DNA of 64,000 nucleotides from Pelistega ratti (lineage in GTDB: Bacteria > Pseudomonadota > Gammaproteobacteria > Burkholderiales > Burkholderiaceae_B), in NCBI RefSeq assembly GCF_009833965.1, contig NZ_CP047165.1:1798001-1862000 (forward strand), given 5' to 3'. The notes beneath the pieces are model-generated. The model made no database searches. It saw only the letters and a list, made by a program, of their open reading frames with translations, and was not told where the DNA came from. Position 1 is the stretch's first letter, and each line of letters begins with the position of its first letter. A program made the position numbers and the translations under genes. Positions 24,797 through 62,756 of the stretch are shown piece by piece.

Positions 24797-25690
24797 ATGC
24801 TACCCTTTACGGTGATGACACCTACTTTTAATCGGGCAACGACTTTGCCTCGTGTTTATGAGAGTTTATTAGCTCAAGATTTTAAGGATTTTGAGTGGTT
24901 GATTGTGGATGATGGTTCTACCGATCATACGAAATCACTGGTGGAATCTTGGATAAAGGAACAAAAAATAAAGATTCGCTATGTTTGGCAAGAGAACCAA
25001 CATAAAAAAGTTGCTTTTAATCATGGCGTGCGAGAGGCAAAAGGGGTATTACTTGTTGCCTTAGATAGTGACGATACCATGTGCCATGATGCCTTAAAGC
25101 ATATGTGGTCAATATGGTTATCACTAGAGAATAAAGAGAACTACATTGGCATTACAGGGCTTTGTGCAAGACCTACAGGTGAAGTAGTCGGTGATGAGTA
25201 TCCACAAGATAAAATGACACTAAGCTCATTGGATATGTATTTTAAATATAAAGTAAGGGGTGAGAAATTTGGGTGCTTGCATACAGCCGTTTTACGACAA
25301 TTTCCTTTCCCAGAAGATATACAAGGTTTTGTACCTGAAAGTCTTGTTTGGAGAGCCATTGCTAGAGCAGGGTATAAGACATTATTTATTAATCATATTT
25401 ACCGTATTTATTTTGAGAGTGGAGATTCTCTTTCTCATGAGGGGAATATTAATGTGGAAAAGCATGCGCTGGGTTTGTTATTACTTGCTAAAGATATGGT
25501 AAATGATTGCTTGCCTTGGTTTCGCTATCAACCTAAAGAATTTATTAAGGCGGCTATTCGTTATAACCGCTTTGTGCGTATCTTAAAGAAAAGAGGGGAT
25601 ACTATTCCTCCTCAAGCCCAACTGACACATTGGCAAGCCAAATTATTGGTGGGTATGACTGCGCCTGTTGCTTATTTCTTGTATAAGTAG
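24797..25690 (+). CDS. Glycosyltransferase family 2
   Basis: 297 residues with a GT-A fold: 'FTVMTPTFNRATTLPRVYES' start, 'WLIVDDGSTDHTKSLV', and the DxD-like metal site 'LVALDSDDTM'. No transmembrane segment, so likely a cytosolic or membrane-associated transferase for LPS or capsule. Isolated from any polysaccharide cluster in this window; follows the small basic gene's terminator and has its own leader. Confidence 0.82.
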   Translation: MLPFTVMTPTFNRATTLPRVYESLLAQDFKDFEWLIVDDGSTDHTKSLVESWIKEQKIKIRYVWQENQHKKVAFNHGVREAKGVLLVALDSDDTMCHDALKHMWSIWLSLENKENYIGITGLCARPTGEVVGDEYPQDKMTLSSLDMYFKYKVRGEKFGCLHTAVLRQFPFPEDIQGFVPESLVWRAIARAGYKTLFINHIYRIYFESGDSLSHEGNINVEKHALGLLLLAKDMVNDCLPWFRYQPKEFIKAAIRYNRFVRILKKRGDTIPPQAQLTHWQAKLLVGMTAPVAYFLYK

Positions 25691-25725: not shown

Positions 25726-25764
25726 TTTACAAAGATTTAAATGTAGTTAATAATTATCATTTTT
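25726..25764 (+). promoter_or_regulatory. Candidate promoter with overlapping Fur-box-like site
   Basis: TTTACA (25726-25731), 17-base spacer, AATAAT (25749-25754). Overlapping the -10, bases 25746-25764 match the 19-bp Fur consensus at 15 of 19 positions when read on the minus strand. Upstream of the first membrane gene. AT-rich background weakens the call. Confidence 0.5.
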
Positions 25765-25784
25765 ATTTATATAAAGGAGAACTT

Positions 25785-26198
25785 ATGGTGGGTATAGAAA
25801 TAGTATTAGTATTGATTAAGGCTTTCGTGCTGTATCTTATTATTCCACTTTTTCTAATAAGAATGGTAGGTGACAAAATTATTGCTTTTCTGTGTATAGA
25901 TAGAGAAGATCAAAAGAGTACAGATTTACTGTTTATGGCTATTGGTATAGTTGTGCTAGTAGGTATATCTTTTTTAGATTCTAATGTAGAGTCTATGAGG
26001 CGGGGTTTTATTATTGTAAGTTTATCCGTAATAGTAACTATTATTCTTCATAAATCTATACTAGGGTTTATGGTGTCAAATCTGGATAAAGAGTATATCG
26101 ACTCACAAAAGGGAAGGGTATTATTTTTTGTACTGCTTTTTATAACAGTGTCGGTAAGTACTGTTATTACTAGAAAATTCTATCTGCTTTATCAATAA
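25785..26198 (+). CDS. Four-helix membrane protein, enlarged member of the immunity-like family
   Basis: 137 residues, mostly hydrophobic, with about four membrane segments. The first half ('LYLIIPLFLIRMVGDKIIAFL') parallels the motif of the smaller downstream proteins, and the C-terminus 'TRKFYLLYQ' parallels their 'KFHL' ending. AAAGGAG lies seven bases before the ATG. It stands first in the array and has its own promoter with a Fur-like site. By analogy with microcin immunity proteins it may protect the producer, but this is inference; no experimental family is recognised. Confidence 0.6.
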   Translation: MVGIEIVLVLIKAFVLYLIIPLFLIRMVGDKIIAFLCIDREDQKSTDLLFMAIGIVVLVGISFLDSNVESMRRGFIIVSLSVIVTIILHKSILGFMVSNLDKEYIDSQKGRVLFFVLLFITVSVSTVITRKFYLLYQ

Positions 26199-26350
26199 AA
26201 ATATTTTTTGACCGTAAAGGAGGAAGAAAGCGCAGGACTATACAAATATTAATTTAGGGTTAATCAAATAGAATTCTGTTTTACTTTCTTTTAAAGAGAA
26301 TTCATTTGTCATATTTATAAAAATAATTTAGTATTAATTGGTTTCTTTTA

Positions 26351-26392
26351 TTTACAAAACATTAAAAAATAATTATAATGAGAATTATTTTC
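26351..26392 (+). promoter_or_regulatory. Candidate promoter with overlapping Fur box
   Basis: TTTACA (26351-26356), 17-base spacer, consensus -10 TATAAT (26374-26379). Bases 26374-26392 match the Fur consensus at 15 of 19 positions and cover the -10. The element 'CTTTTATTTACAAA' is shared with the promoter at 25726, so the two promoters are probably related by duplication. Confidence 0.65.
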
Positions 26393-26423
26393 ATTAACGA
26401 AATATTACATGGGAGGGTTAAAT

Positions 26424-26651
26424 ATGGGGCAAGAAATTGAATATAGTTTATATCTTATTGAAAATATTAAATTTCTCTTCCTTTGTGTTTTTCTTCCTGC
26501 TTTTATAACTCGTATTATTATAAAGGGAATAATGATTTTACGGTATGGAGAAGAAAATAATAAAAAAATACATGAAAATTTAGTGTTATTTATTTTTCCT
26601 TTAATGGTGGTTTTGTCTATCTTTTTAACAAAAGATTCTGTTTTTAGTTAA
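26424..26651 (+). CDS. Small two-helix membrane protein, immunity-like paralogue
   Basis: 75 residues from ATG 26424, chosen because GGGAGGG at 26411-26417 is six bases upstream (an ATG at 26409 would lie before it). Two hydrophobic helices flank a short charged loop. 'FLPAFITRIIIKGIMILRYG' fits the family core P-x-x-I/L-T-x-x-x-x-R/K-G/K-I-M-x-x-x-Y-G. It lacks the C-terminal FHL motif of most relatives. Same length as the 28048 and 29050 proteins. Candidate orphan immunity protein. Confidence 0.65.
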   Translation: MGQEIEYSLYLIENIKFLFLCVFLPAFITRIIIKGIMILRYGEENNKKIHENLVLFIFPLMVVLSIFLTKDSVFS

Positions 26652-26740
26652 AAATAGATGAATATTATAAGGTAAGTATATGAATTATTAGATTATATGA
26701 ATGTAACAAGATAGTAGGTTATTTTAGAAGAAAGCCTTTA

Positions 26741-26983
26741 TTGGATATTTTTAGTATGGAATATTTAAAGAATTTAGTTATTGGTTTTATTATACCGATA
26801 GTTTTGACGATTTTTGTTGTTAGAGGAGTAAGTTTTATATTATATGGTAGTAAATCGGATATAGATATAAGAGTAAGAGGGAGAAAATTTATGGAGATGG
26901 TGCTATGTGGATTGGTATTAGGAGGCTTTCATGGATTAAGTAAAAAATTCCATTTGATTAAAGATGTATTTCCTTTTTTTTAA
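26741..26983 (+). CDS. Small two-helix membrane protein, immunity-like paralogue
   Basis: 80 residues from TTG 26741 (alternative ATG 26756). 'MEYLKNLVIGFIIPIVLTIF' then 'RGVSFILYGSKSD', and a C-terminal 'SKKFHLIKDVF' carry the family motifs. A purine-rich GAAGAAAG lies upstream of the TTG. Its 3' end runs directly into a remnant of a microcin tail, suggesting that a recombination joined the two. Confidence 0.6.
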   Translation: MDIFSMEYLKNLVIGFIIPIVLTIFVVRGVSFILYGSKSDIDIRVRGRKFMEMVLCGLVLGGFHGLSKKFHLIKDVFPFF

Positions 26984-27023
26984 TATCAAGTATAGCAAAG
27001 GCGATGGATGTAGTTATTGCTAG
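26982..27023 (+). pseudogene. Relic C-terminal tail of a microcin precursor
   Basis: In frame just after the preceding gene, bases 26994-27023 read S-K-G-D-G-C-S-Y-C-stop, nearly the same as the tail E-G-D-G-C-D-Y-C-stop of the intact microcin gene. It is followed 15 bases later by an immunity-like gene, the same order as in the intact copies. No start codon or leader remains, so it is a remnant of a lost microcin gene. Confidence 0.65.
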
Positions 27024-27038
27024 AGATAAGGATGAAAA

Positions 27039-27278
27039 ATGTTAAATGATTTATTCACTATTATATTTAGTTTTGAATATTTTAAACGAGTTATGGTCTT
27101 TATTATTCTAGCTGTTATAACTCGAATAATTACCAGAGGAATAATGTTTAAATTATATGGAAGTGAAGATAATAAAGAAGTTAAGGAAGTTTTAGGAATC
27201 TTTATATTTTTTATTGTTATATTATGTGCCCATTTTATTAATAGAACTTTTCATTTAATAGAACTCTTCATTTTTTGA
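27039..27278 (+). CDS. Small two-helix membrane protein, immunity-like paralogue
   Basis: 79 residues, with AAGGATGA upstream of ATG 27039. Reads 'IIFSFEYFKRVMVFIILAVI' then 'TRIITRGIMFKLYGSEDNKE', and ends 'NRTFHLIELFIF'. Closest in layout to the 28048 and 29050 proteins. It lies directly downstream of the microcin tail relic, so it is probably the surviving immunity gene of that lost microcin. Confidence 0.68.
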   Translation: MLNDLFTIIFSFEYFKRVMVFIILAVITRIITRGIMFKLYGSEDNKEVKEVLGIFIFFIVILCAHFINRTFHLIELFIF

Positions 27279-27422
27279 TTAAGTAAAAATAATAGTAAAT
27301 ACAATAATATCAGCTAGTTAGTAGATTTTATATAAATTATTATTATAAATAACCATTTATATAAAATATAAATATTTTGTAACTTTAAGTGTTTTATTTA
27401 TCAGTATTAAAGGGAGGAATAA

Positions 27423-27476
27423 ATGTTAATTAACATTCCTGTATCGGTTAAGCAGTTTAGAGAAGAGTATTTTTAG
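27423..27476 (+). pseudogene. Relic 5' end of the JmjC/cupin gene, copy 1
   Basis: The first 17 codons match the intact gene at 29429 ('MLINIPVSVKQFREEYF'), with the same GGGAGGAATAA ribosome-binding site, then GAG and CAA are replaced by TAG and TAA. Similarity fades over the next 40 bases. Confidence 0.8.
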
Positions 27477-27531
27477 TAAAAAACTTTTTTGATTCTAACT
27501 TATAAAATTAAACTACTAGGGTTTATACTTA

Positions 27532-27585
27532 TTCACAAATTATTTATAAAAATTAATAATTATACAAATAAAAATTATTTGCAAT
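27532..27585 (+). promoter_or_regulatory. Candidate promoter and operator of microcin gene 1
   Basis: TTCACA (27532-27537), 17-base spacer, AATAAT (27555-27560), then an imperfect inverted repeat containing 'AAATAAAAATTATTTGC'. Same architecture as at 28562 but with the left arm mutated. Confidence 0.4.
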
Positions 27586-27649
27586 AATTTATTATATTTT
27601 TATTTTGTGTAGTTTTTAGTATAGTTAATAGCTTATTTTAGGAGGCTTT

Positions 27650-28027
27650 ATGAGAGAACTAAGAATAGATGAGTATCAATTAGTTGTGGGTGGATTGATT
27701 CCTTTAAGTGCGGGTGGTGGGGGACCTGCAGGAGGAGGTGGTGGAGGTATTGGAATTTCGGCTGGTATAGGTGCATTTACAGGTGCAGGATCTTATATGG
27801 GGGGTTCAGGAAAGAAAGATCCCATAGAATTAAGTACTGCGATGCTTAGTGGTGCGTTAGGGGGAGCTATTGCTGGTATTTCTCAATCATTTGGGACTGT
27901 AGGTGCAGGTGCAGTAGGAGGTTTTGTGGGAGGTTATGCTGACAGTATTTTAAAAGGGATGTTCCAAAATAATAATACATCTAATAAACCTGAGCATGGA
28001 GAGGGAGATGGGTGTGATTATTGCTAG
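27650..28027 (+). CDS. Class II microcin-like bacteriocin precursor with double-glycine leader
   Basis: 125 residues. The leader is residues 1-15, 'MRELRIDEYQLVVGG', with L at -12, E at -8, V at -4 and G at -2/-1 as expected for C39-peptidase exporters; it parallels the microcin V leader. The core of 110 residues is Gly/Ala/Ser rich with glycine-zipper-like amphipathic stretches ('GALGGAIAGISQSFG', 'GAVGGFVGG'), one K-K-D-P turn and a tail 'EGDGCDYC' with two Cys. AGGAGG precedes the ATG by four bases. It is followed by an immunity-like gene and by the exporter genes. Antibacterial activity is inferred, and no close named relative is recognised. Confidence 0.78.
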   Translation: MRELRIDEYQLVVGGLIPLSAGGGGPAGGGGGGIGISAGIGAFTGAGSYMGGSGKKDPIELSTAMLSGALGGAIAGISQSFGTVGAGAVGGFVGGYADSILKGMFQNNNTSNKPEHGEGDGCDYC

Positions 28028-28047
28028 ATATAAGATTGGGGGAAAGT

Positions 28048-28275
28048 ATGTTAGTGGATTTTTTCTTTGCTATTTTTAGTTTTAAATATTTAAAATTTAT
28101 TGTTATTGCCGCTGTTATTCCTGTTATGTTAACAAGTTTTATTACAAAAAAGATAATGTTTTGGTTATATGGAGATGAAGGAGATTTTCAACTTAGAGAT
28201 TCTATATCAGGAGTTGTCGTTATTATTATTTTATTTTTTGTACAACTCTTAAATGAAAAATTTCACTTATTTTGA
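28048..28275 (+). CDS. Small two-helix membrane protein, candidate microcin immunity protein (copy 1)
   Basis: 75 residues from ATG 28048, preceded by GGGGGAAAG; the frame is open to TTG 28021, overlapping the microcin stop, but lacks a site there. Two hydrophobic helices ('FIVIAAVIPVMLTSFI' and 'VVVIIILFFVQLL') with 'KKIMFWLYGDEGDFQ' between and 'NEKFHLF' at the end. Located 20 bases after the microcin gene: position and size (microcin V immunity protein Cvi is 78 residues) point to immunity. Confidence 0.72.
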   Translation: MLVDFFFAIFSFKYLKFIVIAAVIPVMLTSFITKKIMFWLYGDEGDFQLRDSISGVVVIIILFFVQLLNEKFHLF

Positions 28276-28426
28276 TAGAAAAGTTATTGACGGTTAATTT
28301 TATCAATTATGAAGAAATCTTGCGAAGTTGCTTATTTCAGGATGGTTGTTAGTTGGGATATACGCATTCTGTTTGTAGTAGGTATTTTCAACAGTGTTAT
28401 CTATCAATAATTAATGGGAGGAATAA

Positions 28427-28480
28427 ATGTTAATTAACATTCCTGTATCGGTTAAGCAGTTTAGAGAAGAGTATTTTTAG
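28427..28480 (+). pseudogene. Relic 5' end of the JmjC/cupin gene, copy 2
   Basis: Identical in its 17 codons and both stop mutations to copy 1, showing that the decay happened before the tandem duplication. Confidence 0.8.
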
Positions 28481-28561
28481 TAAAAAACTTTTTTGATTCT
28501 AACTTATAAAATTAAACTACTAGGGTTTATGCTTATTCACAAATTATTTATAAAAATTAAT

Positions 28562-28594
28562 AATTATTGCAAATAAAAATTATTTGCAATAATT
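28562..28594. promoter_or_regulatory. Perfect 15-bp inverted repeat upstream of microcin gene 2
   Basis: Arms AATTATTGCAAATAA (28562-28576) and TTATTTGCAATAATT (28580-28594) around AAA. Sixty bases before the microcin ATG. Its centre GCAAAT...ATTTGC recalls one form of Fur box, but matches the classical consensus at only 12 of 19 positions. Confidence 0.5.
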
Positions 28595-28654
28595 TATTAT
28601 ATTTTTATTTTGTGTAGTTTTTAGTATAGTTAATAGCTTATTTTAGGAGGCTTT

Positions 28655-29028
28655 ATGAGAGAACTAAGAATAGATGAGTATCAATTAGTTGTGGGTGGAT
28701 TGATTCCTTTAAGTGCGGGTGTGGGGGACCTGCAGGAGGAGGTGGTGGAGGTATTGGAGTTGCTGCTGGTACAGGTGCATTGGCAGGTGCAGGGTCTTAT
28801 ATGGGAAGTTCTGGAAAGAAAGATCCCATAGAATTAAGTACTGCGATGCTTAGTGGTGCATTAGGAGGAACTGTCTCCGGAATTTATCAATTAGGAGGTG
28901 TAGTTTCTGGTGCATTCGGTGTTTTTTTTGGAAGTTATACTGAAAGTGTTTTAAAGGGTACATTCCAAAATAATGATACATCTAATAAACCTGAGCATGG
29001 AGAGGGAGATGGGTGTGATTATTGCTAG
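28655..29028 (+). pseudogene. Second microcin precursor copy, frameshifted
   Basis: The leader is identical to copy 1, but around 28719-28727 the copy reads GGGTGTGGGGG where copy 1 has GGGTGGTGGGGG: one base is missing. Translation would give 58 residues ending at TAG 28829. With the base restored the rest is open and ends in the same 'EGDGCDYC' tail; the middle differs from copy 1 ('GVAAGTGALAG', 'SGIYQLGGVVSGAFGVFFG'). Either a recent pseudogene, an assembly error, or a switchable allele. Total length is also three bases shorter than copy 1 at a second site. Confidence 0.75.
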
Positions 29029-29049
29029 ATATAAGATTGGGGGGAAAGT

Positions 29050-29277
29050 ATGTTAGTGGATTTTTTCTCTGTTATTTTTAGTTTTAAATATTTAAAGTTT
29101 ATTGTTATTGCTGCTGTTATTCCTGCTATGTTAACAAGTTTTATTACAAAAAAGATAATGTTTTGGTTATATGGAGATGAAGGAGATTTTCAACTTAGAG
29201 ATTCTATATCAGGAGTTGTCGTTATTATTATTTTATTTTTTGTACAACTCTTAAATGAAAAATTTCACTTATTTTGA
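29050..29277 (+). CDS. Small two-helix membrane protein, candidate microcin immunity protein (copy 2)
   Basis: 75 residues, differing from the copy at 28048 at only a few positions ('FFSVIFSF' for 'FFFAIFSF', 'VIPAML' for 'VIPVML'). Intact although the microcin gene before it is frameshifted, as expected if immunity is still under selection. Confidence 0.7.
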   Translation: MLVDFFSVIFSFKYLKFIVIAAVIPAMLTSFITKKIMFWLYGDEGDFQLRDSISGVVVIIILFFVQLLNEKFHLF

Positions 29278-29428
29278 TAGAAAAGTTATTGACGGTTAAT
29301 TTTATCAATTATGAAGAAATCTTGCGAAGTTGCTTATTTCAGGATAGTTGTTAGCTGGGATATACGTATTCTGTTTGTAGTAGGTATTTTCAACAGTGTT
29401 ATCTATCAATAATTAAAGGGAGGAATAA

Positions 29429-30592
29429 ATGTTAATTAACATTCCTGTATCGGTTAAGCAGTTTAGGGAAGAGTATTTTGAGCAAAAACCCTTTTTGATA
29501 AAGAATGCAGTTAAAAAGGAGAATTTACTTTCTTGGAAACATATCAATGAAATACTACCAAGATGTAATCTTATTTCTGAGAGTAAAATTAAGCTGATGT
29601 ACCAAGGGAATAAGCTCGCTAAAGAAGCGTACCTAGAGCAATATGATGATTTAGGAACTATTCGATATAAGTTTCATCAAGAATCCTTGTATAACTTTAT
29701 GCGTGCAGGGGCAACTTTAGTCGCTAATGGTATTGTAAATGAACCTCACCTAGATATATTTTGCCAAGAGATATCATCTTTTTTAGGATGTCATACTTTT
29801 GCCAGCCTGTATATTGCTTTTAATTCAGAACGTTCTTTTAAAAATCATTGGGATAGTCGAGATATTTTTGCGATACAGATGAAAGGTAGAAAAAGATGGT
29901 TAATCTATAAGCCTACTTTTCCTAATCCGCTCTATATGCATAAAAGTAAAGAAATGCCTTTATATCAGTGTGATACTTCAGAGGTTTATATGGATATTAT
30001 GCTAGAAGAAGGTGATGTCTTATACTTACCTCGTGGGTGGTGGCATGATCCTATTCCTGTAGGAGAAGAGACTGTCCATTTGGCAATTGGTATATTTCCT
30101 CCTTATGCAAATAATTATTTAAACTGGATTACTAAAAAAGTAGTAGATAATGAGGTAGCAAGAAAATCATTACACTCTTTTGCTCAAGATGAAGTGTTGC
30201 TTGAGGAATTAGCGAAAGTAACAAGTGATAGCATAAAGGATAGAGCAAACTATATGAGATTCTTAGAGGAGTTTTATGATTCAAAAAGAATAGAATCTCC
30301 GTTAAATCTTGAAATATTTGCCAATCATAAAAATACTTCATTGTCAGAAGATACAAAGATAGGGTTTATCAGTAAAAATCATTGGCATGATAAATACCAA
30401 AAGATTATTGCGAATGGGTATGGTATTGCTATTGATGAAAAATTTAAACCTATTTTAGAACACTTACAACAGCCATCAAGTATTGCATTACCTGATTTGC
30501 TTAATTCGATAGAGAATGAAGAGGATAAACAAAGTATTTTGGATTTACTTTGGAGTCTTTCATACTTAGGTATTTTAAAAATACAGAGTTAA
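29429..30592 (+). CDS. JmjC/cupin-8 type Fe(II)/2-oxoglutarate oxygenase-like protein
   Basis: 387 residues. Metal-binding HxD is H140-x-D142 in 'KNHWDSRDIFAIQMKGRKRW'; the distal His is H206 in 'GDVLYLPRGWWHDPIP'. This layout matches the ribosomal-oxygenase branch (YcfD/RoxA) of JmjC proteins, which hydroxylate protein side chains, with an extra C-terminal winged-helix-like part from about residue 300. AGGGAGGAATAA supports the ATG. It lies between the microcin genes and the exporter, suggesting that the microcin or its target may be its substrate; this is inference. 5' relics of the same gene sit upstream of both microcin copies. Confidence 0.75.
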   Translation: MLINIPVSVKQFREEYFEQKPFLIKNAVKKENLLSWKHINEILPRCNLISESKIKLMYQGNKLAKEAYLEQYDDLGTIRYKFHQESLYNFMRAGATLVANGIVNEPHLDIFCQEISSFLGCHTFASLYIAFNSERSFKNHWDSRDIFAIQMKGRKRWLIYKPTFPNPLYMHKSKEMPLYQCDTSEVYMDIMLEEGDVLYLPRGWWHDPIPVGEETVHLAIGIFPPYANNYLNWITKKVVDNEVARKSLHSFAQDEVLLEELAKVTSDSIKDRANYMRFLEEFYDSKRIESPLNLEIFANHKNTSLSEDTKIGFISKNHWHDKYQKIIANGYGIAIDEKFKPILEHLQQPSSIALPDLLNSIENEEDKQSILDLLWSLSYLGILKIQS

Positions 30593-30644
30593 TTTATTCA
30601 TAAAATTGTCTTATTGATTTTACTTATTATTTATTAATCATTTT

Positions 30645-31898
30645 ATGTTGTTTAGACAAGAAGCTTTAGATAATCGTAAGTGGAAAAGTAGGGCAATTTT
30701 AGACTCTAAAATACCTGCTTGGGTAATATGTACAGTTAGTTTTTCATTCATTATATTCTTTATTTTATATCTCATTTTTGGTAGCTATACTCGAAAAGAA
30801 GCCGTATTAGGTGAGATTGTTACAGATCCTCATGCAATTATATTGCCATCGCTCAAGTCAGGATATATTTCTGAGGTGATAGTATCTGTAAACCAATCTG
30901 TTCAGAAAGGTCAGGCACTATTTAAAATTAAAGTAGAACGGGTGACTGATAGAGGTAATATTGATAGTAATTCAATAGCATTTTTACAGCATCAAATAGA
31001 AGAAATAGAAAAAACAATTACATTGTTAAAAGAGAATAAAGAACAAATGATTGTAAATATGGAACAACAGTTAGCCAATAATAGGTCTGTATATCAGGAT
31101 ACTAAAAATTACTTAGAGGAAACCAAGAAAACAGCGATTAGCCATCAGAAATTAGCTGATAAATATCGGCAGTTACTCAAGCAAGGTATTATCAGTAATG
31201 ATGAATATCAATTGCAAGTCAGTCGATATTTCCAAAGTAAGGATACAGGAAGTGATTTACAGATACAGCTGATGCAACTAGATGCCACAAAGCTTAATCT
31301 GCTTAATGATGTAGAATCTAAAAAGATGGATTTTGATAATCAAATACTTCAGTATGCTGTACAAAAAAGTAATTTACAAATTCGGTTAATGGAACTAGAG
31401 GCATCTTCTGAAATAGTTATTAACTCGCCATCTGCAGGAAAGATAGAGTCTGTTAGTGTTACACAAGGTCAAATGATTAGAGAGTCTGATACATTGGCAC
31501 AAATTATTCCTGCTACGAATAGTGAATATAAATTAATTATATGGGTTCCTAATAGTGCAATTCCTTTTGTAAAAGAAAATGATAAGGTAAGTATTCGTTA
31601 TGAGTCATTTCCTTTTGAGAAATTTGGGCAGTTTAAGGGAGTTATAGAATCTATTTCGACCTTACCAGCTACTGCACAAGAGTTGTCTTTATATAAAAAT
31701 GTTCCTCTTTTAGAAAATCCAAATAATTCATTATACAAAGTCATTGTTTTAATTGATGATCAAATTGTTCGCTATCAAGATAAACAATTTCAGTTTATTA
31801 ATGGTATGAAAGCAGAGGTAACTTTATTTTTAGAAAACCGTAAATTGTATGAATGGATATTTAAGCCTATCCACCATTTAACAAAAAATATGGAATAA
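30645..31898 (+). CDS. HlyD-family membrane fusion protein of a microcin exporter (CvaA-like)
   Basis: 417 residues: short cytosolic N-terminus 'MLFRQEALDNRKWKSRA', one transmembrane helix (about residues 28-48), a lipoyl half ('ILPSLKSGYISEVIVSVNQS'), a long coiled coil (about 105-240) and a second lipoyl half with 'INSPSAGKIESVSVTQGQ'. Such adaptors link a peptidase-containing ABC exporter to TolC. Its stop is five bases before the ABC gene, so they are co-transcribed. No TolC-type gene is in the cluster; a genomic one may serve. Confidence 0.85.
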   Translation: MLFRQEALDNRKWKSRAILDSKIPAWVICTVSFSFIIFFILYLIFGSYTRKEAVLGEIVTDPHAIILPSLKSGYISEVIVSVNQSVQKGQALFKIKVERVTDRGNIDSNSIAFLQHQIEEIEKTITLLKENKEQMIVNMEQQLANNRSVYQDTKNYLEETKKTAISHQKLADKYRQLLKQGIISNDEYQLQVSRYFQSKDTGSDLQIQLMQLDATKLNLLNDVESKKMDFDNQILQYAVQKSNLQIRLMELEASSEIVINSPSAGKIESVSVTQGQMIRESDTLAQIIPATNSEYKLIIWVPNSAIPFVKENDKVSIRYESFPFEKFGQFKGVIESISTLPATAQELSLYKNVPLLENPNNSLYKVIVLIDDQIVRYQDKQFQFINGMKAEVTLFLENRKLYEWIFKPIHHLTKNME

Positions 31899-31903
31899 CT
31901 ACT

Positions 31904-33991
31904 ATGCATAAATTAAGTTTTGATTTTTTTAGAAAAGTACCTGTTATTCTTCAATCAGAAATTAATGAATGTGGATTAGCTTGTTTAGCTATGGTAAGAG
32001 GATTTTATGGGGATAATTTAAGTTTATCTGATTTAAAAAGGCAATATGGTTTTTCGTTATCAAGAGGTATGAATTTAAAAAATCTTATTGATATAGCTCA
32101 ACAACTAAATTTTATGACGAGGGCAGTGTCATTAAATTTAGAGGAGCTTTATCAATTAAAGTTACCTTGTATATTACATTGGGATTTTAATCATTTTGTG
32201 GTATTGGTAAAAGCAAGTAAAAATACCTTTACTATTCATGACCCTGCATTTGGAAAAAGAAAAATAACAAAAAATGAATTATCAATGCATTTTACAGGGA
32301 TAGCACTTGAGATATGGGCAAATATACAATTTAATAAGAATTCAATAAAATCAGACAAAATAAATCTTTATGAATTATTTAAAAATATTGTAGGTTTAAA
32401 GTCCTCATTGTTAAAGATTTTTGCTTTGTCATTATTAATTGAATTAATTGGCTTACTTATGCCAATGGGAATGCAGTTAGTAACTGACCATATTATGCAT
32501 GCAAAAGATAAACCTTTATTGCTTGTTGTTTGTCTAGGTTTATTTTTCTTTATGTTTTTTCGTAGTAGTGTGAGTATGCTTCGGGCTTGGATATCTTTAA
32601 AAATGAATTATTTAATAGATTTTCAATGGACAGCTAGTTTTTTCTCTCATTTGCTAAAATTACCTTTAGATTTTTTTGAAAAAAGACGAGTGGGTGATAT
32701 TCAATCAAGATTTGCTTCGTTACGAACAATACAAAAAACGCTAACAGGTAGTGTGGTCTCATTTATTATTAATACCATTATGGTTATTAGCTTATTTACC
32801 ATGATGCTTATTTATGGTGGATGGCTAACTTGGATTATTTTTGGTTTTTCTTTTCTTTACTTATTATTACGTGCATTTACTTATTTTACTTATCGTCGCT
32901 TGAATGAAGAGCAGATCATTAAACAGGCAAAAGTTAGCTCTCATTTTATGGAAAGCTTATATGGTATTACTACTTTAAAATTAGGATTAAATAAAAAAAG
33001 AGAAGAATATTGGATGTCCCTAAATGCTGATACTTTTAATACATCTATACGAATAGCTAAGTTCGATATGATGTTTTCAGGGATATATACTTTTATTGAA
33101 ACTTTTGAACAAATATTAGTTCTAGGGTTAGGTGCTTTATTGGTAATAGAGAATCAAATGACATTAGGAATGTTTATTGCTTTTAATGCATATAGAGGTT
33201 CTTTTTCAGGAAGGATAGAGAGTTTAATTAATATTATTTTCAGTCTAAAAATGTTATCTCTTCACTTAGATAGAATTTCAGATATAGCATTACAGGATAC
33301 TGAAAAGGATAATCTAAGATATATTGTGGATAATAATGAAGGTAGGCAATTAGGTAAAATAGAAGTAAGGAATTTATGCTTCCAATATGATCAACTAGGT
33401 AAAGAGCTATTTTCTAATCTTAATCTAACGATTGATTCAGGAGAGAGCGTAGCTATAGTAGCACCTTCAGGCTATGGTAAAACAACTTTATTAAAATTAA
33501 TGGCTGGATTATTAATTCCTAATAAAGGAGGAGTTTATTTTAATGAGAAAGATATTATTCATCAAATAGGCGTTAATAATTACCGTCAATATATCGCTTA
33601 TGTCCTACAGAATGATAAATTCTTCTCTGGGACTATTTTAGAAAATATTACTGGTTTTGAAGATGAATATGATATGAATTGGGTAATAGAATGTGCAAGG
33701 ATAGCTAATATACATGATGAAATTATGTTAATGCCTATGCAGTATGAAACAATATTATCAGAGTTAGGTGGTAACTTATCTGGAGGACAGCAACAACGTT
33801 TATTTATTGCAAGAGCAATTTATAAGAAGCCCCAAGTCATTTTTATGGACGAAGCGACTAGTCATTTAGATAGAGAAAATGAAAAAATCATCAATAAAGC
33901 TATCAAAAATCTAAGTATTACACGAATAATTATTGCTCATAGAGAATCTACTTTACAATCAGTTGATAGAATTATTCATTTGCCAACCTAA
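31904..33991 (+). CDS. Peptidase-containing ABC transporter (C39 peptidase, CvaB-like)
   Basis: 695 residues in three parts. N-terminal C39 peptidase with Q17, catalytic C23 ('NECGLACLAM'), H97 ('NHFVVLV') and D113 ('HDPAFG'); it should cut after the Gly-Gly of the microcin leader. Six transmembrane helices span about 160-440. The C-terminal ATPase has Walker A 'APSGYGKTT', signature 'LSGGQQQR' and Walker B 'VIFMDEATSHLD'. All catalytic residues are present, so it should be active. It processes and exports the precursor from the inner membrane. Confidence 0.9.
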   Translation: MHKLSFDFFRKVPVILQSEINECGLACLAMVRGFYGDNLSLSDLKRQYGFSLSRGMNLKNLIDIAQQLNFMTRAVSLNLEELYQLKLPCILHWDFNHFVVLVKASKNTFTIHDPAFGKRKITKNELSMHFTGIALEIWANIQFNKNSIKSDKINLYELFKNIVGLKSSLLKIFALSLLIELIGLLMPMGMQLVTDHIMHAKDKPLLLVVCLGLFFFMFFRSSVSMLRAWISLKMNYLIDFQWTASFFSHLLKLPLDFFEKRRVGDIQSRFASLRTIQKTLTGSVVSFIINTIMVISLFTMMLIYGGWLTWIIFGFSFLYLLLRAFTYFTYRRLNEEQIIKQAKVSSHFMESLYGITTLKLGLNKKREEYWMSLNADTFNTSIRIAKFDMMFSGIYTFIETFEQILVLGLGALLVIENQMTLGMFIAFNAYRGSFSGRIESLINIIFSLKMLSLHLDRISDIALQDTEKDNLRYIVDNNEGRQLGKIEVRNLCFQYDQLGKELFSNLNLTIDSGESVAIVAPSGYGKTTLLKLMAGLLIPNKGGVYFNEKDIIHQIGVNNYRQYIAYVLQNDKFFSGTILENITGFEDEYDMNWVIECARIANIHDEIMLMPMQYETILSELGGNLSGGQQQRLFIARAIYKKPQVIFMDEATSHLDRENEKIINKAIKNLSITRIIIAHRESTLQSVDRIIHLPT

Positions 33992-34000
33992 TAAATGAAA

Positions 34001-34035
34001 AGAATACTACCTTAATTAATAGTATTCTCTATTTT
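34001..34035 (+). terminator. Terminator of the microcin export operon
   Basis: Perfect 9-bp stem AGAATACTA (34001-34009) / TAGTATTCT (34020-34028), 10-base loop, followed by CTATTTT. It closes the cluster ten bases after the exporter stop. Confidence 0.65.
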
Positions 34036-34120: not shown

Positions 34121-34651
34121 CTAATGCCAAATCTTCCTACCTAAATAAGTCCCCTTATTCGGCTGAGAAGCTGATTCTTCAGCGTTATCCTCATCAAGAT
34201 CATCATCGTCAAACTCACCATAATCATCTAGCTTATCTTGTAGTGCCATTTCTTCTATTAAATCGGTGTCTGTCATACCAAAAGGTAATAATAAGCTAAT
34301 ATCATCTGACCAATCGACTTCTTCGCCTTGGTAGTCAATACGTGTATAGGTGAGAGGGGGTTCACCAACTTGGATCCCCCAAAGAAATTCACAGTTATAA
34401 ATACTACGATTAAAGTCTTCTAATAAGGCTGACGCACCAATTAGGCGGGCAGAGGGACCTCCCATTTGCATAATAACCGCTTCTGGATCAACGTCTTGAT
34501 TAACCTCTAATGGGGTACCAAAAGCAATCCATTCATAACCCTCTTCGGTTACATCTATTTCAGCCAGTACAGGTTTACCCATATAAGCACTGAGTGCTTC
34601 AACGGTTTTAGAAAGGAGTTCAATATCTTCTTTGGTAAATGTTTGGTTCAT
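34121..34651 (-). CDS. Acidic protein of unknown function
   Basis: 176 residues, cytosolic, no signal or membrane segment. Begins 'MNQTFTKEDIELLSKTVEAL' and has a very acidic C-terminal stretch ('GEFDDDDLDEDNAEE') before a basic end. Contains 'FLWGIQVGEPPLTYTRIDY' in its middle. I do not recognise a family. It is divergent from ettA, with about 190 bases between the starts. The codon use matches the housekeeping genes, not the microcin region, so it probably marks the edge of the accessory block. Confidence 0.6.
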   Translation of the reverse strand: MNQTFTKEDIELLSKTVEALSAYMGKPVLAEIDVTEEGYEWIAFGTPLEVNQDVDPEAVIMQMGGPSARLIGASALLEDFNRSIYNCEFLWGIQVGEPPLTYTRIDYQGEEVDWSDDISLLLPFGMTDTDLIEEMALQDKLDDYGEFDDDDLDEDNAEESASQPNKGTYLGRKIWH

Positions 34652-44454: not shown

Positions 44455-45991
<1,537 letters not shown>

Positions 45992-46060
45992 AAGAGCAAG
46001 AGCTTTAAAGCCAAAGCATCCACATTTATCGGTTGTTCATGAAAAACGTAGCTAGAATTT

Positions 46061-46137
46061 GGGTCAGTAGCTCAGTCGGTTAGAGCACCGTCTTGATAAG
46101 GCGGGGGTCGCTGGTTCGATTCCAGCTTGACCCACCA
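46061..46137 (+). tRNA. ileT: tRNA-Ile (anticodon GAT)
   Basis: 77 bases including encoded CCA; acceptor GGGTCAG...CTTGACC with anticodon loop CTTGATAAG (GAT at 46095-46097) and TTCGATTC T-loop. In the usual 16S-23S spacer position. Confidence 0.95.
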
Positions 46138-46142
46138 ATCAC

Positions 46143-46218
46143 GGGGGATTAGCTTAGTTGGTAGAGCGCCTGCTTTGCAAGCAGGAGGTCATCGGTTCGA
46201 TCCCGTTATCCTCCACCA
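46143..46218 (+). tRNA. alaT: tRNA-Ala (anticodon TGC)
   Basis: 76 bases with CCA; anticodon TGC at 46176-46178 in 'CTTTGCAAG'. Lies six bases after tRNA-Ile. Confidence 0.95.
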
Positions 46219-46306
46219 CTCTATTCGGTGACTAGGTAGCGTTTTTTAAAAAACAACGAACAAGTTTTTATTGTCTATTGCAGCAGGATATGCTACAATA
46301 GTCGGC

Positions 46307-46319
46307 TGTTCTTTAACAA
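46307..46319 (+). promoter_or_regulatory. boxA in the 16S-23S spacer
   Basis: TGTTCTTTAACAA, same as the leader boxA, ahead of 23S. Confidence 0.7.
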
Positions 46320-46643
46320 TTTGGAAGAAGCACAACAAGTAAATAAAGTGAACTTAAATTTCACCAGGAATTTAAGCCAACTTATTGATGGGTTGTGATT
46401 GCATTATTATTTTTGAAGTTCTCAACGCATATAGGATAACCCCTATATGAATAAACATTGATGAACGGCATAAACACGCAAACTCAAGCAAATGGGTGTT
46501 AACGGGTACGAACCAGTACCAAAAAGGCGTTAATATCCAAGGTAAATGGAAAGATGAGTGTATTTTACTTAATTTTTATTTATCTAAAACCGTAAAGTTA
46601 ACTTATGCTATAGCAAAGTAGGCATTAAGCCGATAAAGTTATA

Positions 46644-49680
<3,037 letters not shown>

Positions 49681-49812
49681 ATAACTTTATCGGTTAACGA
49701 GAAAAGTGTGGGTATGCCCCATTAACAGAAAACTTCAAAATAACCATAACCCTCAATTCCTACAAGCTGTGTTTCTTCCAAAGGGCTAAAGCAACAAGCC
49801 TAATCCGTTTAC

Positions 49813-49926
49813 GCTTGACGACCATAGCAAGGTGGACCCACTCCTTCCCATCCCGAACAGGACAGTGAAACGCCTTTGCGCCGATGATAGTGGGTGGACA
49901 CCTGTGAAAGTAGGTCATCGTCAGGC
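49813..49926 (+). rRNA. rrf: 5S ribosomal RNA
   Basis: 'CCCATCCCGAACAGGACAGT' and 'GAAACGCC...GCGCCGATGATAGT' are 5S core sequences. Ends pair (GCTTGACGA with TCGTCAGGC). Ends approximate. Confidence 0.92.
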
Positions 49927-62519: not shown

Positions 62520-62549
62520 AAGTTAAAGGAAGTATCACTGATGTGATTA

Positions 62550-62696
62550 TCTTTAAAAGGCTGGTATCGGACTCGCTTTTATGAAAAAAGCCTACCGTTG
62601 CGGGGGCAGTACAGGTTAATTACATTGAATATCTGTTTCCCATTTACTTTTACCCCATAGTCGTTACTTTTGGCTATGTTAAAAGCACCTCTAAAG
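62550..62696 (-). promoter_or_regulatory. Cobalamin riboswitch
   Basis: Read on the minus strand: 'AGGTGCTTTTAACATAGCC', then 'TAAATGGGAAACAGAT', 'TACTGCCCCCGCAACGGTAG' (the most conserved core) and 'GCGAGTCCGATACCAGCC'. These are the conserved B12 elements in order. It should bind adenosylcobalamin and shut off btuB-btuF when B12 is plentiful. Confidence 0.92.
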
Positions 62697-62756
62697 ATCA
62701 TTGATGGAGGGTGTAAAGTTGTACGACATTTTTATCACCCAACCGAGTATCAATTG

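What the first reader, a model, noticed from the sequence alone, without database searches (positions are those of the whole stretch)
25726..34035. Candidate iron-regulated class II microcin gene cluster with an oxygenase-like gene
The sequence shows a double-glycine-leader precursor, a C39-peptidase ABC exporter with all catalytic residues (C23, H97, D113), an HlyD adaptor, a JmjC/cupin protein, and six related small membrane proteins. Promoters at 25726 and 26351 overlap Fur-box-like sites (15/19 each). Leader and exporter match the known microcin V type; the combination with a JmjC-like gene and many immunity-like genes is not one I recognise. It may be an undescribed microcin from this group.
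Basis: partly seen in the sequence, partly recalled or inferred. Interest (0 to 1): 0.9.

Follow-up and report, generated by a model that had tools for sequence, protein, structure and literature searches.

The report
Microcin cluster with JmjC oxygenase
A recently acquired gene cluster in this bacterium looks built to make and export a small bacteria-killing protein whose conserved tail is probably chemically altered by an iron-dependent oxygenase encoded next to it.

Summary
The parts are real: a class II microcin-type cluster in a Pelistega-like genome, an 8.4-kb low-GC insertion with a double-glycine precursor, a frameshifted second copy, five related small membrane proteins plus one weakly related, a JmjC oxygenase, HlyD and a C39 exporter with C23/H97/D113. 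The combination is not unprecedented: Acinetobacter Mcc17978 (killing shown) has the same microcin-cupin-HlyD-PCAT set, uses the catecholate receptors Fiu/PiuA and is induced by low iron; Moraxella mcbABCI lies beside a split relative of jmjC.

New here is a family-wide pattern. Precursors beside this JmjC clade end in one or two G-x-[D/N]-Y motifs: 34 of 43 canonical-leader ORFs (1.04 expected after shuffling); 39 of 45 close loci on the jmjC strand, 4 of 45 on the other; 0 of 15 leader-like ORFs at 40 C39 loci without JmjC; 5 of 5 close loci fetched later. Between the two copies here the core is 84% identical, tail 96%, leader 100%. I infer that JmjC oxidises the tail before export. Whether this makes an iron-binding siderophore mimic is open: Fur-like sites are not enriched across the family. 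Nothing was tested biochemically.

The parts
25785..26198 (+). orf137, hydrophobic membrane protein, first gene of the insertion; weakly related to im3
   Evidence: ORF; no Pfam/NCBIfam family above cut-off; hydropathy and 24%/67 aa match to im3, E 0.001-0.002
25726..25759 (+). promoter-like site (TTTACA-17-AATAAT) overlapping a Fur-like 15-mer (2 mismatches)
   Evidence: consensus match only
26351..26393 (+). promoter-like site (TTTACA-17-TATAAT) followed by a Fur-like 15-mer (2 mismatches)
   Evidence: consensus match only
26409..26651 (+). im1, orphan immunity-like membrane protein, 80 aa
   Evidence: homologous to im3/im4/im5 (E 4e-12 to 1e-7)
26741..26983 (+). im2, orphan immunity-like membrane protein, 80 aa, TTG start
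   Evidence: 37% to im4/im5
26997..27023 (+). remnant of a lost precursor: C-terminal tail KGDGCSYC and stop, directly in front of im3
   Evidence: (repeat D8)
27039..27278 (+). im3, immunity-like membrane protein, 79 aa
   Evidence: 35% to im4/im5
27406..27493 (+). truncated 5' piece of jmjC (reads MLINIPVSVKQFREEYF then stop), cassette 1
   Evidence: sequence, repeat D2, tblastn match with stops, alignment
27532..27560 (+). promoter-like site in front of precursor 1
   Evidence: consensus match only
27650..28027 (+). precursor 1: 15-aa GG leader, 110-aa Gly-rich mature part (10.19 kDa unmodified), tail GDGCDYC
   Evidence: 98% relative P0001
28048..28275 (+). im4, presumed cognate immunity protein, 75 aa from ATG 28048; its frame is open from TTG 28021 and there overlaps the precursor
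28410..28497 (+). truncated 5' piece of jmjC, cassette 2 (same stop as in cassette 1)
28536..28564 (+). promoter-like site in front of precursor copy 2
   Evidence: consensus match only
28655..29028 (+). precursor copy 2, broken by a frameshift just after the leader; tail GDGCDYC in the other frame
29050..29277 (+). im5, 75 aa, 96% identical to im4
29429..30592 (+). jmjC: ribosomal-oxygenase-like Fe(II)/2OG oxygenase, 387 aa; H140, D142, H217 invariant in the 41-row alignment A1
30645..31898 (+). hlyD-type periplasmic adaptor, 417 aa
   Evidence: HlyD_3 6e-15; type_I_hlyD 2.9e-29, below its cut-off
31904..33991 (+). C39-peptidase ABC exporter, 695 aa, C23/H97/D113, LSGGQ

Best explanation
A horizontally acquired class II microcin cassette cluster whose product is a JmjC-tailored peptide. 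Shown from sequence: (1) a precursor with a 15-residue double-glycine leader, a Gly-rich variable core and a short conserved C-terminal tail; (2) a C39 exporter and HlyD adaptor that would cut after GG and export the 110-residue product; (3) an intact ribosomal-oxygenase-type JmjC enzyme whose clade is found beside precursors with a G-x-[D/N]-Y tail; (4) small membrane proteins paired with precursors or left as orphans, as immunity genes would be. Inferred: the JmjC enzyme hydroxylates the tail (Asp/Asn most likely, Tyr less likely) in the cytoplasm before export; the core acts at the inner membrane of competitors; the oxidised tail serves uptake through an outer-membrane siderophore receptor, as Fiu/PiuA serve the related Mcc17978; the im proteins protect the producer. 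New core/immunity units pile up in front of jmjC and leave copies of its 5' end behind.
Against: No modification, export, processing or killing was measured. Bisaro et al. found that plasmid-borne mcaB alone protects, and read the cupin-like protein as immunity. McbC of M. catarrhalis kills without the tail, so the tail is not needed for every microcin near this clade. The gonococcal locus has an intact JmjC but an untailed Cys-rich precursor and a frameshifted tailed one; Bibersteinia has three tailed and one untailed leader ORF. Sister JmjC proteins (L053, L192) sit by precursors ending SEDGDG or SEDGDE. 6 of 45 close loci have no tail ORF. By my judgement only about 3 to 11 ORFs of the JmjC- control look like genuine precursors, so that control is thin. 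Fur-like sites are not enriched upstream of the family's precursors. The transposon that carries the Mcc17978 locus also carries a siderophore system. Whether Mcc17978 itself has the tail was not tested: its sequence is not held.
Confidence: 0.6

Rival explanations
1. The JmjC protein is a self-protection factor: it modifies the producer's own target or the incoming microcin, and the tail is unrelated to it.
For: Plasmid-borne mcaB (cupin-like) alone protected the locus-deleted A. baumannii strain from Mcc17978 (PMC10333792, passages and section 27); the fold is that of enzymes that modify ribosomal proteins.
Against: The tail follows the JmjC clade far above chance, also in 5 of 7 close loci without an exporter match. 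Pelistega has separate immunity-like membrane proteins paired with the precursors. Here the membrane-protein genes are multiplied, whereas jmjC is kept once, with only 5' scraps elsewhere.
Confidence: 0.15
2. The tail is an unmodified receptor-binding or export signal, and JmjC acts on the core, the leader, or another residue; the co-occurrence reflects inheritance of one cassette type.
For: Unmodified class IIa microcins also have uptake domains; one passage of PMC13174018 puts receptor binding in the C-terminal part (another passage of the same paper states the reverse). JmjC and precursor are neighbours and travel together, and co-inheritance alone gives association.
Against: The tail persists while the core diverges across a 49-row JmjC clade spanning many families; distant JmjC clades lack it.
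Confidence: 0.17
3. The cluster is decaying or silent: a broken second precursor, orphan immunity genes and jmjC fragments are debris.
For: Frameshifted precursor copy, jmjC fragments and a tail remnant.
Against: Precursor 1, im4, jmjC, hlyD and the exporter are all intact open frames with catalytic residues; a 98% identical intact precursor exists in another Pelistega record.
Confidence: 0.05
4. The exported Gly-rich peptide is not antibacterial but a surface, biofilm or signalling peptide.
For: C39 exporters also serve non-bacteriocin peptides (general knowledge); no activity measured.
Against: Same kind of gene set as two loci with demonstrated killing, Mcc17978 and mcbABCI; immunity-like gene next to the precursor and orphan copies.
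Confidence: 0.06

Closest known systems
Mcc17978 locus mcaABCD, Acinetobacter baumannii ATCC 17978 (PMC10333792)
   Same: Microcin with GA-type leader, cupin-like gene, HlyD, PCAT; low-iron induced with a putative Fur site; killing shown.
   Different: Authors propose the cupin-like protein as immunity and leave the subclass and any modification open; no tail is described in the parts I saw (abstract, sections 21 and 27, passages). Here: tandem cassettes, homologous small membrane proteins, Pasteurellaceae-type JmjC. Whether Mcc17978 has the G-x-[D/N]-Y tail was not testable.
mcbABCI of Moraxella catarrhalis pLQ510 (PMC2761928)
   Same: HlyD, C39 exporter, GG precursor, overlapping small immunity gene; a JmjC-family gene lies upstream.
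   Different: Its cupin gene is split over two frames, McbC lacks the tail, and the exporter genes come before the precursor.
Class IIb siderophore microcins (MccE492, MccH47, MccM)
   Same: GG leader, C39 exporter, conserved C-terminal tail that aids uptake, one tailoring set that can serve several microcins (passages of PMC10233263).
   Different: Their tail is Ser/Gly-rich and gets an enterobactin-derived group by dedicated genes; no such gene was seen in the insertion, and the tail here is G-x-[D/N]-Y with a JmjC gene.
Ribosomal oxygenases YcfD/RoxA, NO66, MINA53
   Same: Fold over nearly the whole length, HxD...H site.
   Different: Cluster-borne clade of its own; substrate predicted to be an exported peptide.
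BipG, JmjC ornithine hydroxylase of biphenomycin biosynthesis (PMC12707348, passages)
   Same: JmjC enzyme hydroxylating a side chain of a ribosomal precursor peptide.
   Different: Different pathway, residue, leader and export.

Membership tests
Class II microcin | 15-18 aa double-glycine leader | tested here: met
   MRELRIDEYQLVVGG
Class II microcin | C39-peptidase ABC exporter plus membrane fusion protein | tested here: met
Class II microcin | about 5-10 kDa mature peptide | tested here: inconclusive
   110 aa, 10.19 kDa unmodified, just above the usual range
Class II microcin | cognate immunity gene | tested here: inconclusive
   im4 follows and in its open frame overlaps the precursor, and belongs to a family with orphan copies; no protection test
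Class II microcin | antibacterial activity | not testable with these tools
   needs bench work
Class IIb (siderophore) microcin | Ser/Gly-rich C-terminal region | tested here: not met
   tail is NNNTSNKPEHGEGDGCDYC; family consensus GxDYxDGxNYx
Class IIb (siderophore) microcin | siderophore-attachment genes in the cluster | tested here: not met
   the larger ORFs between 25691 and 34120 are jmjC, hlyD and the exporter; the rest that were scanned are short and mostly hydrophobic, without a family
Mcc17978-type (microcin + cupin-like + HlyD + PCAT) | four-gene set | tested here: met
   against the gene list
Mcc17978-type (microcin + cupin-like + HlyD + PCAT) | precursor homologous to Mcc17978 or sharing its tail | not tested
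   sequence of Mcc17978 not held; other Acinetobacter-genus loci have the tail (L091, L190 and L191)
Ribosomal-oxygenase (ROX) JmjC fold | full-length structural match and HxD...H | tested here: met
Ribosomal-oxygenase (ROX) JmjC fold | Fe(II)/2OG hydroxylation of a ribosomal protein | not testable with these tools
   needs enzymology
Fur-regulated microcin | Fur site at the promoter | tested here: inconclusive
   two sites with 2 mismatches, weak genome-wide enrichment, not family-wide

The most novel reading that the evidence does not exclude
A third tailoring route for class II microcins: instead of attaching a siderophore, the producer's JmjC oxygenase oxidises one or two G-x-[D/N]-Y repeats (to beta-hydroxy-Asp/Asn, or Tyr to a catechol) so that the peptide's own tail becomes an iron-binding siderophore mimic. 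That would explain why the related Mcc17978, whose four-gene locus (microcin, cupin-like, HlyD, PCAT) sufficed for killing when moved to other strains, enters through the catecholate receptors Fiu and PiuA.
Probability: 0.25. Interest if true: 0.9.

Novelty: new variant of a known kind. Interest (0 to 1): 0.68.

Why it matters
Class II microcins are taken to be either unmodified or siderophore-conjugated (passages of PMC10233263 and PMC13174018). A JmjC-linked tail found from Pasteurellaceae and Neisseria to Pseudomonas, Marinomonas and Burkholderia would define a further subclass. It gives a simple sequence rule (GG leader at the start, G-x-[D/N]-Y at the end, JmjC next door) for finding more, supplies a candidate substrate for an enzyme so far read as an immunity protein, and makes the receptor question of Mcc17978 directly testable.

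Tried and rejected
Structural or adhesin protein: rejected because of leader, exporter and immunity-like neighbours. Iron regulation as a family trait: tested on 34 tailed precursors with their 600 bp upstream, 8 with a Fur-like site (<=3 mismatches) against 4.67 expected; of 12 Pseudomonas loci above 50% GC, 2 have any site at <=3 mismatches; kept only as a weak local hint. Anti-phage defence: no PADLOC match for the four proteins given. Curated precursor family: none over cut-off in NCBIfam or Pfam for 10 precursors (only sub-threshold MccV, Bacteriocin_IIc, E492 and the like), nor for the window's precursor. Class-wide sample for the JmjC: only the own genome at 1e-30 (1 of 369), so the clade is rare. 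Viral-contig scan with P0038: no relative. A second leader pattern was poorly tuned (20 ORFs in 45 JmjC+ loci, 6 with tail; 0 of 24 in 40 JmjC- loci) and is not relied on. The upstream glycosyltransferase (24797-25690) is not counted as part of the cluster: it is in 4 of 6 other genomes of the genus.

Rows and weak points of the counts: the 43 canonical-leader ORFs were de-duplicated by sequence (L092 repeats L016, L093 repeats L091) and keep some doubtful ORFs (for example L027 14867-15130 on the minus strand); the motif in L012 8513-8758 and L047 (GEDY) is probably incidental. In one search the 45 close loci were chosen by me (L010-L048, L053, L058, L090-L093), include L053 (outside the 49-row clade in the tree) and the duplicate plasmid loci, and some of the 39 hits are incidental frames; the 7 hits in distant loci look incidental by eye. 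For the JmjC- control I fetched 40 stretches of the 48 C39 matches listed, one of which is the window's own. For the later check I fetched 6 new loci found: five close ones, 34-59% identical to the window's JmjC but not placed in the tree (all five with tail; L200 and L201 have the same tail ORF end and are not independent; L199 has the contig length of the record behind P0007, whose JmjC was already in A1), and L192 of the sister type (without); the fragmentary G645 matches were not fetched.

Literature: word searches. No paper in that library holds both 'bacteriocin' and 'JmjC domain' or 'class II microcin' and 'JmjC'; the cupin-microcin link appeared through. The tail motif itself was not searched for in print. 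Papers: PMC10333792 abstract, outline, sections 21 and 27, passages; PMC2761928 section 6 and passages; PMC10233263, PMC13174018, PMC12707348 passages only; all others search listings only. PMC13174018 contradicts itself on which end of the peptide serves uptake.
Full report
WHAT IS THERE. The window lies in a 2.33-Mb one-contig genome. Apart from this genome's own second copy, the only relative found of the precursor is from Pelistega sp. NLN82 (98%, three differences in 125 residues), so I take the genus as Pelistega by inference. Between a glycosyltransferase gene (24797-25690) and a conserved gene on the other strand (34121-34651) lies 8.4 kb of DNA; the 2-kb bins within it have 27-31% GC, most flanking bins 36-42% (the 33-34% bins at 40-44 kb and the rRNA bins are exceptions). 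In three other genomes of the genus the same two neighbours are about 0.25, 0.34 and 0.82 kb apart (G005, G004, G006, by match coordinates). In G006 the gap holds a small toxin-antitoxin-like pair (my reading of the two frames), so this looks like an insertion hotspot. The exporter is absent from the six other genomes of the genus at E 1e-60; of these six, three have only a weak JmjC match (28%) and three none.

GENES. In order: a hydrophobic 137-aa protein; three small membrane proteins without an intact precursor (im1-im3); precursor 1 and im4; a second, frameshifted precursor copy and im5; jmjC; hlyD; the C39 exporter. The exporter has C23, H97, D113 and an LSGGQ signature. im1-im5 are one family (E 5e-17 to 8e-5 between different members, im4 and im5 96% identical); the 137-aa protein is only weakly like im3. 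The precursor has a 15-residue leader ending GG and a 110-residue, 30% Gly, 10.19-kDa mature part that ends GDGCDYC.

CASSETTE ARCHAEOLOGY. Precursor-immunity units are repeated at 1002-1005 bp. Each is preceded by about 70 bp of the 5' end of jmjC, which reads MLINIPVSVKQFREEYF and then a stop in both copies. In Bibersteinia trehalosi (L010) three tailed precursors lie around jmjC (a fourth, untailed leader ORF lies further upstream) and two truncated jmjC starts are present; one runs into the 3' end of hlyD and the start of the exporter gene. In the three further Pasteurellaceae-family loci fetched later (L199-L201) I saw no such direct copy of the jmjC start. In front of im3 in the window, the tail of a vanished precursor survives (KGDGCSYC, stop). 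This looks like repeated duplication or import of units with the jmjC start as one boundary, followed by internal deletions; the mechanism is inferred. Between the two Pelistega units the leader is 100% identical, the core 84.1%, the tail 95.7%, the immunity gene 97.8% and the flanks 96-98%: a variable core between fixed ends.

THE FAMILY. From 80 loci around JmjC relatives, most of the close ones also carry HlyD and a C39 exporter: Pasteurellaceae, Photorhabdus/Xenorhabdus, Moraxella, Psychrobacter, Neisseria, Marinomonas, Pseudomonas, Delftia and others. Their precursors share the leader and commonly end in G-x-[D/N]-Y, once or twice (GTDYNNAAGTNYN, GSDYGDGCNYQ, GNDYCDDGTDY). Counts: 34 of 43 distinct canonical-leader ORFs (in the last 35 residues 17 have one copy, 17 two, 9 none) against 1.04 expected after shuffling the mature part. 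39 of 45 close loci have a tail ORF on the jmjC strand within 3.5 kb, 4 of 45 on the other strand; in 39 distant JmjC loci the numbers are 7 and 1, and those 7 look incidental. With one ORF scan for both sets, 30 of 61 leader-like ORFs in 45 JmjC+ C39 loci have the strict terminal tail, 0 of 15 in 40 C39 loci without JmjC (Fisher 2e-4); few of those 15 look like genuine precursors. Loci fetched after the motif was set: 5 of 5 close ones have it (L190, L191, L199, L200, L201; L200 and L201 share the same tail ORF end), and the sister-type L192 has SEDGDG instead. In close loci without a C39-bearing exporter match in the stretch held, the tailed precursor is still beside jmjC in 5 of 7 (L020, L022, L035, L044, L199; not L045, L048).

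HOW IT PROBABLY WORKS. Shown: presence and intactness of the parts, the conserved tail, its association with JmjC. Inferred: JmjC hydroxylates the tail before export. Asp/Asn is favoured because both occur at that position and JmjC enzymes such as FIH hydroxylate Asn and Asp (recalled); Tyr to a catechol is possible. A JmjC enzyme that hydroxylates a side chain of a ribosomal precursor is known (BipG; passages of PMC12707348). Class IIb peptides carry a siderophore on their C-terminal tail for uptake (passages of PMC10233263); for E. coli microcins in general one passage of PMC13174018 puts receptor binding in the C-terminal part and another says the reverse. Mcc17978, with the same gene set, uses the catecholate receptors Fiu and PiuA and is induced by low iron, and its locus on a plasmid sufficed for killing in two strains that lack it (PMC10333792). 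Together these suggest a siderophore-mimicking tail; I give that 0.25.

RESULTS AGAINST. The cupin-like mcaB alone protected cells from Mcc17978 and was read as immunity; the transposon that carries that locus also carries a siderophore system. McbC kills without a tail; its JmjC gene is split, which fits but is a single case. The gonococcal locus has an intact JmjC next to an untailed precursor and a frameshifted tailed one. 6 of 45 close loci show no tail ORF: L036, L042, L045, L048, L053, L090. Fur-like sites are not enriched in the family (8 of 34 against 4.67) and weakly at best here. The JmjC- control is small in real precursors.

VERDICT. Not a new kind of system and not an unknown gene combination, but a new member of a little-studied microcin type. 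I found no description of the conserved JmjC-linked tail in the word searches made (most papers seen as listings only). It gives a concrete, testable mechanism.

Noticed in passing
44455-49926: Complete rRNA operon (16S, two tRNAs, 23S, 5S), which explains the high-GC stretch.
   Followed up: no
62542-62706 (- strand): Cobalamin riboswitch, 46.8 bits.
   Followed up: no
G000:C1:585901-586254 (L002): A second, weak C39-like match (21.8 bits, 22.1 with its neighbours) in a 737-aa frame elsewhere in the genome.
   Followed up: no
L177 (G006 gap, about 1246-2080): At the site occupied here by the microcin cluster, another genome of the genus has two small genes that read like a HigB/HigA toxin-antitoxin pair: an insertion hotspot (identification by eye).
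   Followed up: partly
L053 9198-9724, L192 5879-6442: Acinetobacter-genus precursors beside a sister JmjC type end in SEDGDG or SEDGDE instead of G-x-[D/N]-Y: possibly another substrate motif.
   Followed up: partly
L092 10318-10726: In Neisseria gonorrhoeae a tailed precursor is frameshifted: leader in one frame, tail KSGNGYTDGTDYC in another; jmjC is intact.
   Followed up: no
NZ_CP119142.1: A 2.17-Mb gonococcal record, by its size a chromosome, is listed in the plasmid collection.
   Followed up: no
L010 7053-8305 and 12082-14218: In Bibersteinia trehalosi hlyD and the exporter gene are each split over two frames although jmjC is intact.
   Followed up: no
L091 8456-8686: Unannotated 76-aa hydrophobic ORF just before the tailed precursor on an Acinetobacter plasmid: a candidate immunity gene besides the cupin.
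   Followed up: no
L199: A Pasteurellaceae-family locus keeps jmjC and a tailed precursor although no HlyD or C39 exporter match lies in the 17.5 kb held.
   Followed up: no
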